Shown here: piece by piece, positions 4-25,772 of the stretch | How positions within the stretch are numbered: the first letter of the stretch is position 1 | Layout: every line of letters begins with the position of its first letter | Assembly (NCBI GenBank): GCA_027483125.1 | Contig: JAIXVH010000233.1 | Span: forward strand, 1 to 32,225 | DNA length: 32,225 nt | Reading direction: 5' to 3' | From: Acetobacteraceae bacterium | GTDB taxonomy: Bacteria; Pseudomonadota; Alphaproteobacteria; Acetobacterales; Acetobacteraceae | The notes under the pieces: model-generated | Database searches by the model: none | The model's input: the letters and a program-made list of their open reading frames with translations, nothing else | Told to the model about the DNA's origin: nothing | Position numbers and translations under genes: made by a program

Positions 4-1395
4 CTATTGCTCATGGAAGGCACGATGCAGGCTGTCGCGGACCGGCTGTGTCATGTACCGCCAGAAACTCCGCTGGCCGATCATCACATGCGCCTCCACC
101 GGCATGCCGGGCACCAGGAACACCGCTGGCAGGCGGGCCAACTGCTCTTCATCGATTTCGACATAGGCCCGGAAATAGGTGGCGCGCGTGGCCTGGTCAG
201 TGGTCACGTCGGCCGCCACGAAGGTCACGCGGCCATGCAGATACGGCACCAGGCGCTGCTTGAAGGCGGGCAGACGGATTTCGGCCTGCAGCCCCGGATA
301 GACCACGTCGATGTCGAAGGGCTGCACATTCACCTCGGCCACCAGGCGATCGCGCACCGGCACCAGATCCATCACCGGGTCGCCGGCGCGGATGGCGGCA
401 CCGATGGTGAAGTGGCGCAGATTGACGATGGTGCCGGGTTCCGGCGCGGTGATCTCGCGGCGCACGGCCACATCCTCGGCGGCACGGAGGCGTTCCTCGG
501 TCTCGGCCAGGCGGGCGGCCACTTCGCGCAGTTCAGCGCTGACCTCTTGCTGGCGTTGGCTGCGTACTTGCTCGATGCCGCGCTGCGCCTCGGCGATCGC
601 ACCCTGGGCCCGGGCTATCTGCCCGTTCAGGTCCACGATCTGCCCATCCAGGCCCGCCACGGCGCGTTGCAGCGCCAACAATTCCGGCAGCCGCGCAAGG
701 CCCTGGTTCACCAGCCCCCGGCGCATCACCTCTTCCTGGCGGATCAAGTCCAGCTGACGGCGGGACGCTGCCAGCTGCCCCTGCGCGCCGACGATCACAG
801 CCTGCTGCTGCGCCACGCGCGTTTCCAGCACCATGACCTGGCTCATCAGCGAGGCCTGGCGTGCTTCAAACAAGGCGCGCTGGCCGGCCATGACCTCATC
901 GGCGCGGGCATGGCCCGCGGTGGTCAGCGCCAGGGGGAAGGCCACTTCGCGGGCATTGGCGGCCTCGGCATCCAGCCGCGCATCCTGCGCCAGCAGGCCG
1001 AAGCGTTGGGCGCGTAGCGCATCCAGCGTGGCATTGGCCTGGATGTCATCCAGGCGCATGACCACCTGGCCGGCCTCGACGCGCGTGCCGTCGCGCACCA
1101 GGATTTCACGCACAATCCCGCCTTCAAGATGCGCCAGCGTCCGCCGCGTGCCTTCCACCTTGATGACGCCGGGCGCGATGGCAGCCTCGGCCAGGGGCGC
1201 GGTGGTGGCCCACACCATGAAACCGCCGAAGAAGCCCACCATGAACACCAGCCCCACGATGATCGGCCAGCGCGTGCGCGGCGCCTTGGCATCCAGGATC
1301 GGGTCGAAGGGCAGATCGATGGGCGGTCGGCGGGCCGGCGCCACGGTGGCGGGCGGCGGGGCAGCGGGGCGTTCGGCGACGGGTGCGTCGGACAT
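4..1395 (-). CDS. HlyD family type I secretion periplasmic adaptor (membrane fusion protein)
   Basis: Single N-terminal TM (WPIIVGLVFMVGFFGGFMVWATTAPL), 'GVIKVEGTRRTLAHLEGGIVREILVRDGTRVEAGQVVMRLDD' lipoyl/HlyD motif, C-terminal 'VFLVPGMPVEAHVMIGQRSFWRYMTQPV'. The track ORF starts at a GTG (1404); ATG at 1395 with an upstream GGGAGG is more likely. Confidence 0.93.
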   Translation of the reverse strand: MSDAPVAERPAAPPPATVAPARRPPIDLPFDPILDAKAPRTRWPIIVGLVFMVGFFGGFMVWATTAPLAEAAIAPGVIKVEGTRRTLAHLEGGIVREILVRDGTRVEAGQVVMRLDDIQANATLDALRAQRFGLLAQDARLDAEAANAREVAFPLALTTAGHARADEVMAGQRALFEARQASLMSQVMVLETRVAQQQAVIVGAQGQLAASRRQLDLIRQEEVMRRGLVNQGLARLPELLALQRAVAGLDGQIVDLNGQIARAQGAIAEAQRGIEQVRSQRQQEVSAELREVAARLAETEERLRAAEDVAVRREITAPEPGTIVNLRHFTIGAAIRAGDPVMDLVPVRDRLVAEVNVQPFDIDVVYPGLQAEIRLPAFKQRLVPYLHGRVTFVAADVTTDQATRATYFRAYVEIDEEQLARLPAVFLVPGMPVEAHVMIGQRSFWRYMTQPVRDSLHRAFHEQ

Positions 1396-1396
1396 C

Positions 1397-3154
1397 TCAG
1401 GCACCTCCCTGGGCGGCGACAGGACCTGGGCCGGGCAGCCCGGCCGGCCGCGGCGGCGCCATCAGGCGCTTCAAAACTTCGGCGCGCGGGCCGAACATCT
1501 CGATCGCGCCTTCCTTCAGCAGCAGCACCTTGTCCACGCCCTGCACCAGCGCCGGGCGATGGCTGACCAGCACCACGGTCGTGCCCTGGGCCTTCAGTTG
1601 TTCCAGCGCGCGGGTCAGCGCGGCCTCGCTGTCGCCATCGAGGTTGGAATTGGGCTCGTCCAGCACCACCAGCTTGGGTCGGCCAAACATGGCACGCGCC
1701 AGACCAATCAACTGCCGCTGTCCGCCGGAGAGGAAGGTCCCGCCCTCGCCGATCTCGGTGTCATAGCCCTGCGGCAGGCGCAGGATCATCTCATGGCAGC
1801 CGGCGAGACGGGCGGCAGCGAAGACCTCCTCCGGCTCGGCCTCGCCCATGCGGGCGATGTTGCGGAAGACGGTGCCGTCGAACAGTTCCACATCCTGCGG
1901 CAGGTAGCCGACATGGCGGCCGAAATCCTCGCGCTGCCACATGAAGACATCGGCGCCATCCAGCCGCACATGGCCCTGGCTTGGTTGCGCCACGCCGATC
2001 AGCATGCGGATCAGCGTGGTCTTGCCGGCGGCCGAGGGGCCGATGATGGCCAGCGAATCCCCTGGCGGCAGGTCGAAGTTCACACCCTTGACCATGGGCA
2101 CGCCCTGGCCGGGGAAGGCGAAGGTCACGCGCTCGACCGCCAATGCACCCGTGGGTTCGGGCAGCGCCATACCCTCGGGGCGCAGCCGCGGCAGGGCCAT
2201 GAAGGTCTGCAGGCGACGATAGGATTGCCGTGCCGCCACCAGCGATTTCCAGCCGCCGATCAACTGTTCGACCGGCGCCAAGGCGCGGCCCATGATGATC
2301 GATGCCGCGATCGAGGCGCCCGCCGTCAATTGCTGCATCAGCACCAGATAGGCGCCCAGGCCCAGGATCGCGATCTGCACCGCAAGCCGGATGAACTTGG
2401 TCATGCCCATGATCCAGGCGGCACGGTCCGCCGCGCGGATCTGCGGCGGCAGCATGGCCGAAACGCCCTCGCGCCAGCGCGACACCACGGCGGGCAGCAT
2501 GCCCATGCTGTCGATCACCTCGGCATTGCGGCCAATCGCATCGGCGCGGCGCTGGCTCGCCATCGCCGCCACATTCGCTTCCTTCAGAAGGGAAGCGGTG
2601 ATGATCTCGTTCAGGATGGTCAGGCCGAACAGCAATGCCGCGCCGGCCAGCGCCACCCAACCCATCACCGGGTGCAGCATGAAGATCACGGCCAGGTAGA
2701 TCGGCACCCAGGGCACGTCATAGATGGACAGCATCGCCGGCGAGCCCAGGAAGCCGCGGCAGATGGCCAGGTCGCGCAGCGCCTCCATCCGGTAGGGGCG
2801 GCCCTTCAGCTGCGATTCCAGGGCGCGCGAGAAGCCTTCCGGGGCAACGCGATTCTCGATCCATTGGCCCACGCGCTGCATCACCGTGCTGCGCACCGCC
2901 TCCAGCACCGCAAGAATCCCGATGGCAAAGACGGCGATCAGCGTCAGGTAGATCAGTGTGTCGGTGTTGCGGGTGGCGAGCACCCGGTCGAACACCTGCA
3001 TCATGTAGATCGACACGGTGAGCTGCAGCAGGTTCGCCACGCCGGAAAACGCGCCGACAATCGCGAATTGCCCGCGGCAGGCGGCCAACGCCTTGGCGAT
3101 CGGCGTGTCCTTCATCGGGTTGGGCGCGAACAGCCCCGGGCGCGGCGGCATCAT
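1397..3154 (-). CDS. type I secretion system permease/ATPase (ABC transporter)
   Basis: TM domain followed by an ABC ATPase: Walker A 'GPSAAGKTT', signature 'LSGGQRQLIGLARAM', Walker B 'LVVLDEPNSNLD', H-loop 'VSHRP'. Directly upstream of the HlyD gene. Confidence 0.94.
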   Translation of the reverse strand: MMPPRPGLFAPNPMKDTPIAKALAACRGQFAIVGAFSGVANLLQLTVSIYMMQVFDRVLATRNTDTLIYLTLIAVFAIGILAVLEAVRSTVMQRVGQWIENRVAPEGFSRALESQLKGRPYRMEALRDLAICRGFLGSPAMLSIYDVPWVPIYLAVIFMLHPVMGWVALAGAALLFGLTILNEIITASLLKEANVAAMASQRRADAIGRNAEVIDSMGMLPAVVSRWREGVSAMLPPQIRAADRAAWIMGMTKFIRLAVQIAILGLGAYLVLMQQLTAGASIAASIIMGRALAPVEQLIGGWKSLVAARQSYRRLQTFMALPRLRPEGMALPEPTGALAVERVTFAFPGQGVPMVKGVNFDLPPGDSLAIIGPSAAGKTTLIRMLIGVAQPSQGHVRLDGADVFMWQREDFGRHVGYLPQDVELFDGTVFRNIARMGEAEPEEVFAAARLAGCHEMILRLPQGYDTEIGEGGTFLSGGQRQLIGLARAMFGRPKLVVLDEPNSNLDGDSEAALTRALEQLKAQGTTVVLVSHRPALVQGVDKVLLLKEGAIEMFGPRAEVLKRLMAPPRPAGLPGPGPVAAQGGA

Positions 3155-19008: not shown

Positions 19009-19893
19009 ATGCTGGGCGCGATGGTGACAATCCTATGCGGCCTCGGCGCGATGCTGCTCTATTCCGGCAGTTTCGTGGCCACCAAGCATGGCCTGGCCGT
19101 GGGGCTGTCGGGCTTCGATGTGATGATGCTGCGCTATGCGGCGGGCGGTGTGGTCGCGGCGCTGCTGCTGGCGCGCATCGGCCTTGGCGGGCTGTCGGCC
19201 GGGCGCATAGCGGCGCTCGCCGCTCTCGGCGGCGCGCCCTATTTCACGGCGCAGGTGGTGGGTGTGGGCTGGTCCAGCGCCTCGCATGCCGCAGTGCTGA
19301 ACCCGGGCGGGACAGTGGTTTTCGCGACGCTGCTGGGCTGGTTCGTGCTGCGCGACATGCCCGGGCGCGGGGCGCTGGCCGCGCTGCCGCTGCTGCTCGG
19401 CGGGCTTCTGCTCATCTCAGGCGCGTCCTTCGGCGGCACGGCGCTGTGGGGCGATGCGGTGCTGCTGATGAGCGGGATCCAATGGGCGCTGTACGGCACA
19501 CTGCTGCGCCGATGGCATGTGACCGGCCTGCGCGCGGCCTGCATCATCAGCGCCTTCTCGCTGCCCGTGGTGCCGTTGCACGCGGTGCTGGAGGGTTGGC
19601 AGGGCATCGCCGCGCATCCATCGGAGGCGCTGCTGCAGGCACTGTTCCAGGGCATCGCGGTGGGTGTCCTGGCGAATGCGCTCTACTCGCATTGCTACGC
19701 GGTGATGGGGCCTGGACGGGCTGCGATCTTCCCGCCGCTGGTGCCTGTGCTGGGCACATTATTGGCCGCGCTGGTGCTGGCGGAGGCGATCAGCGCCACG
19801 CAGATCGGCGGCATGGCGCTGGTGGTCGGAGGCATGCTGCTGGCGGGGCTGTGGCGCAGCCCCGTTTCGCAGGTCAAACGCCCGTCTGGCTGA
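19009..19893 (+). CDS. EamA/DMT superfamily transporter
   Basis: About ten TM helices, 'VLNPGGTVVFATLLGWFVLRD', internal duplication typical of EamA. Alternative ATG at 19021. Confidence 0.87.
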   Translation: MLGAMVTILCGLGAMLLYSGSFVATKHGLAVGLSGFDVMMLRYAAGGVVAALLLARIGLGGLSAGRIAALAALGGAPYFTAQVVGVGWSSASHAAVLNPGGTVVFATLLGWFVLRDMPGRGALAALPLLLGGLLLISGASFGGTALWGDAVLLMSGIQWALYGTLLRRWHVTGLRAACIISAFSLPVVPLHAVLEGWQGIAAHPSEALLQALFQGIAVGVLANALYSHCYAVMGPGRAAIFPPLVPVLGTLLAALVLAEAISATQIGGMALVVGGMLLAGLWRSPVSQVKRPSG

Positions 19894-21313
19894 CGAATTT
19901 GGTGTTCAGATAGGCCTCGATCGCCTCAGAACCGCCCTCGGTGCCATAGCCGCTATCCTTCACGCCGCCGAACGGCACTTCTGGCAGCGCGAGGCCCAGA
20001 TGGTTGATCGTCATCATGCCAACCTCGACGCCCGCGGCCAGCCGCGCAGCCGTCTTGCCGCTGGTGGTGAAGGCGTAGCTGGCCAGGCCATAGGGCAGGC
20101 GATTGGCCTCGCCGACCACTTCCTCGATATCCTTGAAGGGGCGCATGAAGGCGATCGGGCCGAAGGGTTCGTCATTCATGCCCATCAGCTCCGTGGACGC
20201 GCCGGCGACGACGGTGGGCTCGTAGAAATAGCCCTTGTTGCCGATGCGGTTGCCGCCGGTGACGACCTCCGCACCCTTGCCGCGCGCATCGGCCACCATG
20301 GCTTCCAGCACCGGGATCCGCCGCTCATTCGCCAGCGGCCCCATGGTGGTGTCGGCGGCCAGACCATCGCCCACCTTCACCGCGCGCGCGTGGCCCACGA
20401 AGCTGGCGACGAAGCGATCATAGACCTTTTCCTGCACCAGGAATCGCGTCGGGCTGACGCAGACCTGGCCGGCATTGCGGAACTTCGCCATGGCGAGGAT
20501 TTTCGCCGCCGCATCCACATCCGCGTCGTCGAACACCATGGCCGGCGCGTGGCCGCCCAGTTCCATTGTCAGGCGCTTCATGTGCTGGCCGGCGAGTGCC
20601 GCCAGATGCTTGCCGATCACGGTGCTGCCGGTGAAGGTCACCTTCTTCACGATCGGGTGCGGGATCAGGTAGCCGCTGATCTCCGACGGCGTGCCGAAGA
20701 CGATGTTGATGACATCGCCGGGCACGCCCGCATCCAGAAAACACTTCAGCAATTCGACCGGCGAGGCCGGCGTTTCCTCGGGCGGCTTGACGATGACCGA
20801 GCAGCCGGCGGCCAGCGCCATCGACACCTTGCGCACCACCTGGTTGATCGGGAAATTCCACGGCGTGAAGGCCGCGACCACGCCCACCGGCTCCTTGATG
20901 GCGAGCTGGTAGATGCCCTCGGCGCGGGCGGGAATCACCTGGCCATAGGTGCGGCGCGCTTCCTCGGCGAACCAGTCGATGATGTCGCAGCCAGCCATGA
21001 CTTCCATCTTGGCTTCCGCGACCGGCTTGCCCTGCTCCAGCGTCATGATGCGCGCGATGGCGTCGGCGCGGCTGCGCATCAGATCGGCGGCGCGGCGCAT
21101 GACCTTGCCGCGCTCGAAGGGGCTGACCTTGCGCCATTGCGCGAAGCCGCGTTCGGCGGAGGCGAGCGCCGCATCCAGATCGGCGCGGCTGGCATGGGCG
21201 ACTGTGCCTATCACTTCTTCGTTGGATGGGTTCAGCACATCGATGCGGCGGCCGCCTTCCGCATCGCGCCATTGGCCCGCGATGTGCAGGGAAACATTGG
21301 GATATTCGGACAT
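19874..21313 (-). CDS. gabD: NAD-dependent succinate-semialdehyde dehydrogenase-like aldehyde dehydrogenase
   Basis: 'PWNFPINQVVRKVSMALAAGCSVIVKPPEETPASP', 'TMELGGHAPAMVFDDADVDAAA', 'NAGQVCVSPTRFLVQ', 'MMTINHLGLALPEVPFGGVKDSGYGTEGG'. ATG at 21313. Confidence 0.88.
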   Translation of the reverse strand: MSEYPNVSLHIAGQWRDAEGGRRIDVLNPSNEEVIGTVAHASRADLDAALASAERGFAQWRKVSPFERGKVMRRAADLMRSRADAIARIMTLEQGKPVAEAKMEVMAGCDIIDWFAEEARRTYGQVIPARAEGIYQLAIKEPVGVVAAFTPWNFPINQVVRKVSMALAAGCSVIVKPPEETPASPVELLKCFLDAGVPGDVINIVFGTPSEISGYLIPHPIVKKVTFTGSTVIGKHLAALAGQHMKRLTMELGGHAPAMVFDDADVDAAAKILAMAKFRNAGQVCVSPTRFLVQEKVYDRFVASFVGHARAVKVGDGLAADTTMGPLANERRIPVLEAMVADARGKGAEVVTGGNRIGNKGYFYEPTVVAGASTELMGMNDEPFGPIAFMRPFKDIEEVVGEANRLPYGLASYAFTTSGKTAARLAAGVEVGMMTINHLGLALPEVPFGGVKDSGYGTEGGSEAIEAYLNTKFVSQTGV

Positions 21314-21432
21314 ATGGGCGTCTCCTTCCTTTGGCACGGAAGCATGCCCGAGGGGCGCGGCCGCGCATAGGCTCCCCTCGCGGCGGGCAGCGCAGCCTGG
21401 GCAATATGGCGTGTCAGCAGAGGACCGCGCCC

Positions 21433-22086
21433 ATGCCTGTGAACGTGCGCATCATCGACAGCCGTGTCGGCTATTCCTTCAAGACGCCCAAGCCGCTCGA
21501 TTTCAAGGCGACGCCCAAGACCGACATCGCGCTGCTGTTCGCCGACATCGTCGATGCCCTTCGCAACCAGAAGATCGGGCTGTTGCAGATCCTGGCGCAT
21601 GGGATCTACCGCTCGGACGAGACGGGCAGGCACCGCTTCGGCTTCGGCGTCGAGCTCGGGCAGCAGAACCTCTACGCCAGCAACCTGCGCGACATTCTGG
21701 GACGGCTGGCGGGGCGCTTCGCATCCAGGGAGATGGGCATTGAGCTGCGCGCCTGCGCGGTGGCGCAGAACAACGCGTTCAACGAACCGCAGGGCGATGG
21801 CGGCGTGGCGTGGCGCGTGGGCGATGGCCTGGCATTCTGCCAATCGATGGCCGACATCACCGTGACAGGCGTGCTGGCATCGACCGAGAACCAGACCAAT
21901 CCCTGCGACCCCGTCGCCATGCTGGTAATGGACCGGGCGGTGAGCGATGCGGGCGTCTTGTTTCAGAAGAGCGACGAGGAAATCCGCAACCAGAACTGCG
22001 GCATGGGTGTGTGGGACGGCAATGTCTGGCTGTTCACGCCGGGCAAGGCCGCACGCAATGTCACGGCGCAGTTTCGCGGACGGTAG
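21433..22086 (+). CDS. uncharacterised 217-aa protein with DUF4347/caspase-like (clan CD) pattern
   Basis: MPVNVRIIDSRVGYSF...; 'LLQILAHGIYRS' then 'GIELRACAVAQN' then 'GDGLAFCQSMADITVTGVLASTENQ', the order seen in DUF4347-type proteins (…SHG…/…L.GC.VA…/…F…LA..T...VAAST). The CDS itself is well supported; the fold is inference. Confidence 0.75.
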   Translation: MPVNVRIIDSRVGYSFKTPKPLDFKATPKTDIALLFADIVDALRNQKIGLLQILAHGIYRSDETGRHRFGFGVELGQQNLYASNLRDILGRLAGRFASREMGIELRACAVAQNNAFNEPQGDGGVAWRVGDGLAFCQSMADITVTGVLASTENQTNPCDPVAMLVMDRAVSDAGVLFQKSDEEIRNQNCGMGVWDGNVWLFTPGKAARNVTAQFRGR

Positions 22087-22113: not shown

Positions 22114-22800
22114 TCAAAGCGGCGCCGCTTCCACGCGCCCGCCGCGAATGGTCACCGCACGATCCATCCGCGCGGCCAGCGCCGGGTTGTGCGTGGCGAT
22201 CAGCGCCGCGACGCCATGGCCGCGCACCTGTTCCAGCAATTCCTCGAAGACCCGGTCCGAGGTGCCGACATCGAGATTGCCGGTCGGCTCATCGGCCAGC
22301 AGCAGGCGCGGCTTGTTGGCCAAGGCGCGCGCGATGGCGACGCGCTGTTGTTCGCCGCCGGATAGGCGCCCGGGCCGGTGGTCCAGCCGCTCCGTCAGGC
22401 CGAAACGGCCGAGCAGTTCGGCCGCGCGCGCCGCCGCCTGCGCACGCCCCACACCGGCTGCCATCTGCGGCAGGATCACATTCTCGGCCGCGGTGAATTC
22501 CGGCAGCAAATGGTGCGACTGATAGACGAAGCCGATCGAGGAACGGCGCAGCGCGGTGCGCTTGTCATCGCCGAGCGTCCCGGCGGCCTGGCCGGCGATG
22601 AAGACTTCGCCGGAATCGGGCTTTTCCAGCAGGCCGGCCAGATGCAGCAGCGTGGATTTGCCGGTGCCCGAGGGTGCGACCAGCGCCACGATCTCGCCCG
22701 CGCGCAGGGACAGCGAGGCGCCGTCCAGCACGGTCAGCGCGCCGGCCTCGGTGCGGAAACGCCGCACCACATCGCGCAATTCCAGGACCACATCACTCAT
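22114..22800 (-). CDS. lolD: lipoprotein-releasing ABC transporter ATP-binding protein LolD
   Basis: '[32 protein letters not shown]', '[18 protein letters not shown]', '[15 protein letters not shown]', '[12 protein letters not shown]'; adjacent to lolC/E. Confidence 0.95.
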
Positions 22801-25468: not shown

Positions 25469-25544
25469 GAATTCGCGCAAGTTTTTTTCGATATCCGCCT
25501 GAGCGGCATGCAGATATTGCTTCCCCTACCATCAGCCTTGGGCT

Positions 25545-25573
25545 AAAAAAAAGGCCGCCCATCGAGGGCGGCC
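25545..25573 (-). terminator. rho-independent terminator, minus-strand orientation
   Basis: On the minus strand: GGCCGCCC-TCGAT-GGGCGGCC followed by TTTTTTTT. Confidence 0.88.
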
Positions 25574-25595
25574 AAGTTTAGGGAGGAAACGCCAG

Positions 25596-25772
25596 TCACA
25601 CGGCAGAAAGAGGACCAACCTCTCTCTGAACCCAAGATTGGCAAAAAACGGTCGGGGCGCTCAACGTCAAACGACCGGTTCGGTGGGTGAAAAATGGGCG
25701 AAAAGCTCGGACCCGCCAAAAACGAAAGCGGATCGTGCCTTTAATGGCCCGGTCCGCCTTTTTTTTGTGCAT
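25596..25772 (-). CDS. candidate small basic protein (58 aa)
   Basis: MHKKKADRAIKGTIRFRFWRVRAFRPFFTHRTGRLTLSAPTVFCQSWVQREVGPLSAV; GAGGG about 9 nt upstream of ATG; stop shortly before the 25545 terminator. Competes with an ncRNA interpretation. Confidence 0.25.
   Translation of the reverse strand: MHKKKADRAIKGTIRFRFWRVRAFRPFFTHRTGRLTLSAPTVFCQSWVQREVGPLSAV
25643..25677 (-). terminator. weaker hairpin with T-tract, minus-strand orientation
   Basis: CGGTCG...CGACCG stem followed by TTTTTT on the minus strand (aaaaaa at 25643-25648 on plus). Confidence 0.4.
25728..25766 (+). terminator. rho-independent terminator, plus-strand orientation
   Basis: gcggatcg-tgcctttaatggcc-cggtccgc stem (one G:U) followed by c + tttttttt. 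Confidence 0.7.

What the first reader, a model, noticed from the sequence alone, without database searches (positions are those of the whole stretch)
21433..22086. Stand-alone 217-aa protein with a putative caspase-like (DUF4347-type) His/Cys dyad
Seen: the predicted protein carries 'LLQILAHGIYRS' (His56, codon 21598-21600) and, 52 residues later, 'GIELRACAVAQN' (Cys108, codon 21754-21756), then 'GDGLAFCQSMADITVTGVLASTENQTNP'. Knowledge: DUF4347, a domain usually found at the N-terminus of very large secreted proteins, has the same order of motifs (hydrophobic strand-SHG; strand-GC.VA; F...LA..T...VAAST) and belongs to the clan CD/caspase-hemoglobinase-like group. Inference: this may be a compact, cytoplasmic (no visible signal peptide), single-domain relative, divergently oriented to a gabD-like ALDH. 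A free-standing version that is not part of an adhesin could be a protease, a pseudo-protease or a regulator not yet described.
Basis: partly seen in the sequence, partly recalled or inferred. Interest (0 to 1): 0.65.

Follow-up and report, generated by a model that had tools for sequence, protein, structure and literature searches.

The report
Likely injected caspase-like protease effector
A lake alphaproteobacterium carries a small stand-alone protein that keeps the His/Cys pair of caspase-like proteases and occurs almost only in bacteria armed with a type VI secretion "harpoon", so it is probably a protease injected into other cells, akin to two Pseudomonas proteins described in 2026.

Summary
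The ORF at 21433-22086 (+) is real. It encodes a 217-aa protein with no signal peptide that matches no Pfam, NCBIfam or PDB entry by sequence. Profile work shows it belongs to an undescribed family of roughly 200-aa solitary proteins in Acetobacterales, other Alphaproteobacteria, Acidobacteriota and Runella. His56 and Cys108 are invariant in all 18 diverse members aligned, and each follows a predicted strand. The new point is function. A solved DUF4347 structure is Tce1, a cargo of the Pseudomonas aeruginosa type VI secretion (T6SS) tube protein Hcp3; its stand-alone relative Tce2 harms yeast through its active site (PMC13323088). The AlphaFold model of a window-family relative matches Tce1 best. 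In 300 same-family genomes, 18 of 19 gene carriers have a T6SS sheath gene against 142 of 300 overall (p = 9e-6, uncorrected for phylogeny; genus level 0.016). Carriers elsewhere are mostly T6SS-positive too. The gene is solitary, lacks an immunity partner, and diverges faster than its syntenic neighbours. Best reading: an orphan Tce-like cysteine-protease effector. Secretion and proteolysis are untested.

The parts
21433..22086 (+). CDS of 217 aa (stop included): stand-alone DUF4347/clan-CD-like protein, Tce-like effector candidate
   Evidence: syntenic ortholog in G001
21598..21600 (+). His56 codon, first member of the predicted catalytic dyad, directly after predicted strand 48-54
   Evidence: invariant in 18/18 and 19/19; DSSP of model
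21754..21756 (+). Cys108 codon, predicted nucleophile, directly after predicted strand 102-106 (IELRAC)
   Evidence: invariant in 18/18 and 19/19; DSSP of model
22006..22041 (+). C-terminal motif GxWxGxVWxFxP (residues 192-203); compare GGDWxLE at the end of DUF4347
   Evidence: G192/W194 conserved; D136/W137 conserved in the DUF4347 set; correspondence is inference, outside the hhalign-aligned part
21338..21432 (.). 95-bp divergent intergenic region with the ALDH gene; no sigma-70-type promoter found
19874..21337 (-). flanking ALDH (gabD-like) gene, syntenic in G001, 77% identical
22114..22800 (-). flanking LolD-like ABC ATPase gene, syntenic in G001, 79% identical; leaves no room for an immunity gene

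Best explanation
The protein is a free-standing single-domain cysteine protease of the caspase-hemoglobinase (clan CD) fold, in the DUF4347 branch. It works as an orphan, immunity-less T6SS effector: loaded into the lumen of the Hcp tube as Tce1 is and Tce2 is thought to be, delivered into another cell (more likely eukaryotic, such as a protist or fungus, than bacterial), where Cys108 activated by His56 cleaves an unknown protein. Shown here: the conserved dyad, homology to DUF4347, fold-level similarity, T6SS co-occurrence, and a solitary fast-evolving gene. Inferred: proteolysis, Hcp loading, delivery and target.
For: H56 and C108 are invariant in all 18 divergent homologs. Profile match of the family to DUF4347: 97.4%, E 1.3e-11. 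For the window's own subfamily alone: 95.8%, E 6.7e-9, with 30 column shuffles and a reversed control at most 1.1%. 11 of 18 members hit Pfam DUF4347 and 3 of 18 hit CHAT. A DUF4347 profile finds PDB 9qpe_G, which is Tce1 inside Hcp3 (PMC13323088). The model of a relative (pLDDT 84, pTM 0.86) has 9qpe_G as top PDB hit, prob 1.00, TM 0.58/0.63. The window protein's own model (pLDDT 74) has SAVED-CHAT as top hit, prob 0.94, with legumain and the TcdB protease domain lower down. Tce2 is a stand-alone 190-aa protein, His65/Cys115, toxic to yeast but not as C115S. T6SS sheath: 18 of 19 carriers against 124 of 281 non-carriers, Fisher p 8.6e-6; genus level 0.016. In a class-wide sample with 64 of 337 T6SS-positive, the three carriers outside the family are all positive. 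Further Acetobacterales genomes 3/3, Acidobacteriota 4/4 (one weak), Runella 2/2 with T6SSiii TssC, E < 1e-149. Hcp in 18 of 19 carriers, including the window's genome. Single gene with no recurring neighbour. Identity 39-43% against 72-80% for its syntenic neighbours.
Against: No family member lies in a T6SS cluster, and none was seen beside hcp. T6SS co-occurrence is not corrected for phylogeny or genome size. One MAG with a 99% identical paralog shows no sheath gene (L082/G634), possibly because it is incomplete. Many T6SS-positive genomes lack the gene. The window protein's own model is only moderately confident and did not rank 9qpe among its top 50. The family profile did not find 9qpe by sequence. 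No activity data exist for any member.
Confidence: 0.58

Rival explanations
1. A cytoplasmic caspase-like protease or signalling protein that acts inside its own cell (regulated proteolysis, stress or cell death). The T6SS link would be a by-product of shared lineage and genome size.
For: No signal peptide or secretion motif; located among housekeeping genes; no physical link to T6SS genes. Clan-CD proteins such as CHAT act intracellularly in bacterial immunity (PMC10028731, PMC9729208, abstracts).
Against: No partner, sensor or substrate gene recurs beside it. T6SS association recurs in other families and in two other phyla, including the distinct T6SSiii of Runella. It diverges much faster than its neighbours. 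Closest structural relative of the better-modelled member is an Hcp cargo.
Confidence: 0.25
2. A T6SS effector aimed at bacteria, with self-protection by inactivity at home or by an unlinked immunity gene.
For: The 2021 study saw killing of E. coli by Tce1/PA0256 (PMC8262886). Most T6SS effectors are antibacterial (general knowledge).
Against: No recurring adjacent immunity-like gene in the loci inspected. The 2026 study did not reproduce marked E. coli toxicity for Tce1 or Tce2 and found Tce2 toxic to yeast.
Confidence: 0.1
3. A catalytically dead domain, for example a binding or adhesin-derived DUF4347 fragment left by gene decay or exported by type I secretion.
For: DUF4347 is usually the N-terminus of giant secreted proteins. 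Type I secretion genes lie at 4-3154 in the window and beside the B-type gene in G005 and G006. Some relatives are broken.
Against: Giant DUF4347-like proteins of the same bacterial family have lost the His (LVAYGS, L032-L035), whereas every solitary member examined keeps both His and Cys. The window gene itself is 20 kb from the type I genes and intact. Its C-terminus has no obvious type I signal by eye.
Confidence: 0.07

Closest known systems
Tce2 (PA2372) and Tce1 (PA0256, PDB 9QPE), Hcp3-loaded T6SS cysteine-protease effectors of Pseudomonas aeruginosa (PMC13323088)
   Same: Stand-alone size (190 aa for Tce2 against 217 aa), His-Cys spacing (50 against 52), DUF4347/clan-CD fold, T6SS-positive host, no immunity gene nearby; a relative's model matches Tce1 with TM 0.58/0.63.
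   Different: No sequence-level match to Tce1 by phmmer or family profile. [quoted passage not shown] Hcp binding and toxicity untested here. The extra C-terminal WxGxVWxFxP conservation was not compared with Tce2.
DUF4347 (PF14252)
   Same: Order and context of motifs (strand-HG, strand-xC.xA, later LA..TGA.V.AS); hhalign 97.4%; 11 of 18 family members score E <= 1.
   Different: Typical members are N-terminal domains of proteins of about 600 to 10,000 aa; the window protein itself does not match the Pfam model.
CHAT caspase-like domain (PF12770), e.g. SAVED-CHAT 8TL0
   Same: Fold and dyad type; top PDB fold hit of the window model; 3 of 18 members hit CHAT.
   Different: CHAT proteins carry sensor or TPR domains and act inside the cell; this protein is a bare domain.
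TcdB/RtxA-type autoprocessing cysteine protease domains and caspases/legumain
   Same: Clan-CD His/Cys arrangement; several among the fold hits.
   Different: Fold scores are weak (E > 0.02); no inositol-phosphate site tested; not part of a large toxin.

Membership tests
DUF4347 (PF14252) | Score above the Pfam gathering cut-off | tested here: not met
   Window protein: no hit even at E 10. Own genome: none over the cut-off. Eleven of 18 relatives hit at E <= 1, best 1.2e-6.
DUF4347 (PF14252) | Homology by profile-profile comparison with His and Cys aligned | tested here: met
   hhalign 97.4%, E 1.3e-11, H56 on HG and C108 on C; controls at most 1.1%.
Clan CD (caspase-hemoglobinase fold) peptidases | His and Cys each at the C-terminal end of a central strand, His before Cys | tested here: met
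   Strands 48-54 and 102-106 precede H56 and C108 in the model; same in the relative. Distance between side chains was not measurable (coordinates not available).
Clan CD (caspase-hemoglobinase fold) peptidases | Structural match to solved clan-CD proteins | tested here: inconclusive
   Top hit SAVED-CHAT, prob 0.94, E 3.9e-3, TM 0.40, mixed with Rossmann-type hits. Relative: Tce1, prob 1.00 but E 5.1e-3.
Clan CD (caspase-hemoglobinase fold) peptidases | Proteolytic activity | not testable with these tools
   Needs biochemistry.
T6SS Hcp-cargo cysteine-protease effectors (Tce) | Genome encodes a T6SS with Hcp | tested here: met
   TssC on G000:C344 and C326, Hcp on G000:C76.
T6SS Hcp-cargo cysteine-protease effectors (Tce) | Conserved His/Cys dyad in a small stand-alone domain | tested here: met
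T6SS Hcp-cargo cysteine-protease effectors (Tce) | Binding to or loading in Hcp; T6SS-dependent delivery | not testable with these tools
   Needs co-purification and secretion assays.
T6SS Hcp-cargo cysteine-protease effectors (Tce) | Direct sequence relation to Tce1/Tce2 | tested here: inconclusive
   DUF4347 profile finds Tce1 at 1.4e-6 but the family profile does not.

The most novel reading that the evidence does not exclude
The family is an unrecognised cross-phylum class of orphan, immunity-less T6SS protease effectors. It occurs in Acetobacterales, Acidobacteriota and Bacteroidota, and with both T6SSi and T6SSiii. Environmental bacteria would use it against eukaryotic predators or competitors, and it would be derived from the same ancestor as the N-terminal domain of giant DUF4347 adhesins.
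Probability: 0.33. Interest if true: 0.7.

Novelty: new member of a known kind. Interest (0 to 1): 0.52.

Why it matters
Effectors that ride inside the Hcp tube and have no immunity gene are hard to find because they lack markers and can sit away from T6SS clusters. A conserved His/Cys family that tracks T6SS across phyla would extend the Tce class far beyond Pseudomonas. It gives a searchable motif set (xHG, I.L.xC.xA, GxWxGxVWxF) and a testable function for DUF4347, which is still annotated as unknown.

Tried and rejected
Direct sequence look-ups of the window protein (Pfam, NCBIfam, PDB, plasmids, phages, genome contigs patterns) gave nothing; only six-frame searches in relatives found homologs. 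PADLOC and PHROGs gave only chance-level hits such as Cas13a at E 0.067, so a defence or phage origin is not supported; no viral contig. Weak matches L005 (E 0.008) and L012 (41 residues, E 0.00995) were inspected and discarded. The idea of a linked immunity gene was rejected after inspecting the family gene's immediate neighbours in 25 loci. Genetic linkage to T6SS clusters was looked for and not found. The idea that the gene decays only where T6SS is lost (G069, L027) was not kept as strong evidence, because broken copies also occur in T6SS-positive genomes (L023, L029/L040, L011). A first gene-calling script based on GC3 called wrong strands and was replaced by a codon-usage model. Alignment A1 was not conserved enough for pattern scans of two collections.

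Full report
What is there. His56 and Cys108 lie at the stated codons. The gene is a single transcription unit between a divergent ALDH gene and a convergent LolD-like gene, with 27 bp between it and the latter. The window lies in a 4.0-Mb assembly (G000). The genus neighbour G006 holds a contig that genome contigs names as Rhodovarius crocodyli (same length and coordinates; Acetobacterales, Roseomonadaceae), so the host is Rhodovarius or very close.

Homologs. The protein alone hits nothing in Pfam, NCBIfam, PDB, plasmids, phages or by peptide patterns in genome contigs. Six-frame searches found six divergent homologs in the same bacterial family, and profile searches extended the set. A second copy in the window's own genome (G000:C414:6344-6907) belongs to a better conserved sister subfamily ('A': MIIHDRRL, LHILCHGFE, FACAPADT, VIAARDTQ, IDFGAWEGPVY). 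The window protein belongs to a faster-evolving subfamily 'B' (several long branches, so fine placement is unsure). Subfamily A also occurs in Acidobacteriota and in two Runella (Bacteroidota).

Conservation. In 18 diverse members only L51, H56 and C108 are strictly invariant. In a second set of 19 they are again invariant. Four further, very divergent members (L031, L038, L039, L041) also keep both residues. By contrast, giant DUF4347-type proteins in the same bacterial family have LVAYGS in place of the HG motif (L032-L035).

Relation to DUF4347 and fold. The family profile aligns to ten DUF4347 domains from other Alphaproteobacteria with 97.4% probability and E 1.3e-11, His on His and Cys on Cys. 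Subfamily B alone gives 95.8% and E 6.7e-9; 30 shuffles per comparison and a reversed profile give at most 1.1%. Eleven of 18 members hit Pfam DUF4347 and three hit CHAT. AlphaFold2 with 18 relatives gave pLDDT 74, pTM 0.75 for the window protein and pLDDT 84, pTM 0.86 for the R. crocodyli relative. In both, the His and the Cys directly follow central strands. Foldseek against PDB: the window model's best hit is the SAVED-CHAT filament protein (prob 0.94, E 3.9e-3). The relative's best hit is 9qpe_G, Tce1 (prob 1.00, TM 0.58/0.63, E 5.1e-3). E-values are modest, so the fold assignment rests on the profile and motif evidence together with the models.

What Tce1 and Tce2 are. PDB 9QPE is the P. 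aeruginosa Hcp3-Tce1 complex (PMC13323088). Tce1 (PA0256) had earlier been noted as an Hcp3 cargo with a DUF4347 domain (PMC8262886). Tce2 (PA2372) is 190 aa with predicted dyad His65/Cys115. It impairs yeast growth, and the C115S change relieves this. Neither has an obvious immunity gene nearby, and neither markedly affected E. coli in the 2026 work, unlike the 2021 report for Tce1. The authors call both putative cysteine proteases.

T6SS test. In the same 300 family genomes, 142 carry the sheath gene TssC (PF05943). Of the 19 that carry a solitary family member (four genomes with only giant DUF4347-like proteins set aside), 18 are TssC-positive; Fisher p 8.6e-6. This is not corrected for phylogeny; treating genera as units, all ten carrier genera are positive (p 0.016). 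Eighteen of 19 carriers also have Hcp. The TssC-negative carrier, G069, has an in-frame stop in its copy and only a partial Hcp match, but broken copies also occur in T6SS-positive genomes, so this is weak support. In a class-wide sample (64 of 337 positive) the three carriers outside the family (G564, G485, G551) are all positive; a fourth match there (L012) covers 41 residues without the motifs and was dropped. Outside the sample, 3 of 3 further Acetobacterales genomes and 4 of 4 Acidobacteriota genomes (one weak) are positive, and both Runella have T6SSiii TssC. One MAG (L082) with a copy is negative.

Gene context. No neighbour recurs across the family apart from synteny between close relatives. 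Sites include ALDH/lolD, sdh-type and thiolase-type housekeeping loci (families named from sequence by eye). In G001 the gene sits in the identical slot: EamA-type 72%, ALDH 77%, LolD 79% and LolC/E 80% identical, the gene itself 39-43%. So it is an old resident that evolves fast, as expected of an effector but also of a weakly constrained gene.

Conclusion. Shown: a real gene, a conserved dyad, homology to DUF4347, clan-CD-like models, and a strong but phylogenetically uncorrected T6SS association. Inferred: that it is a protease, is carried in Hcp, and acts in another cell, probably a eukaryote since no immunity gene is present. It is filed as a likely new member of the Tce kind, not as a proven one: Pfam's cut-off is not met by the window protein, and Hcp binding and activity are untested.

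Noticed in passing
window 25538-25611 (-): Rfam match to mmgR/suhB sRNA (RF00519, 50.8 bits over a 41-bit cut-off), 'Makes More Granules Regulator RNA'.
   Followed up: no
G000:C414:6344-6907 (L036): A second family member (subfamily A, about 27% identical to the window protein) in the window's own genome; 99% identical copy in a Lake Pavin MAG (L082).
   Followed up: yes
window 4-3154 (-): Type I secretion HlyD-like and ABC genes; in G005 and G006 the homologous cluster lies close beside a subfamily-B gene (L064, L065), so a further copy might lie just beyond the window's contig end.
   Followed up: partly
L032-L035 (open frames 972-2936 aa): Giant DUF4347-like proteins of one genus with Tyr in place of the catalytic His (LVAYGS) but Cys kept: likely pseudo-enzymes.
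   Followed up: partly
L027, L029/L040, L023, L011: Copies broken by an in-frame stop or a frameshift, in both T6SS-negative and T6SS-positive genomes: recurrent decay or assembly error.
   Followed up: partly
L101, L102 (Runella): Subfamily-A genes in Bacteroidota, near PQQ-like repeat proteins with secretion signals, in genomes with T6SSiii.
   Followed up: partly
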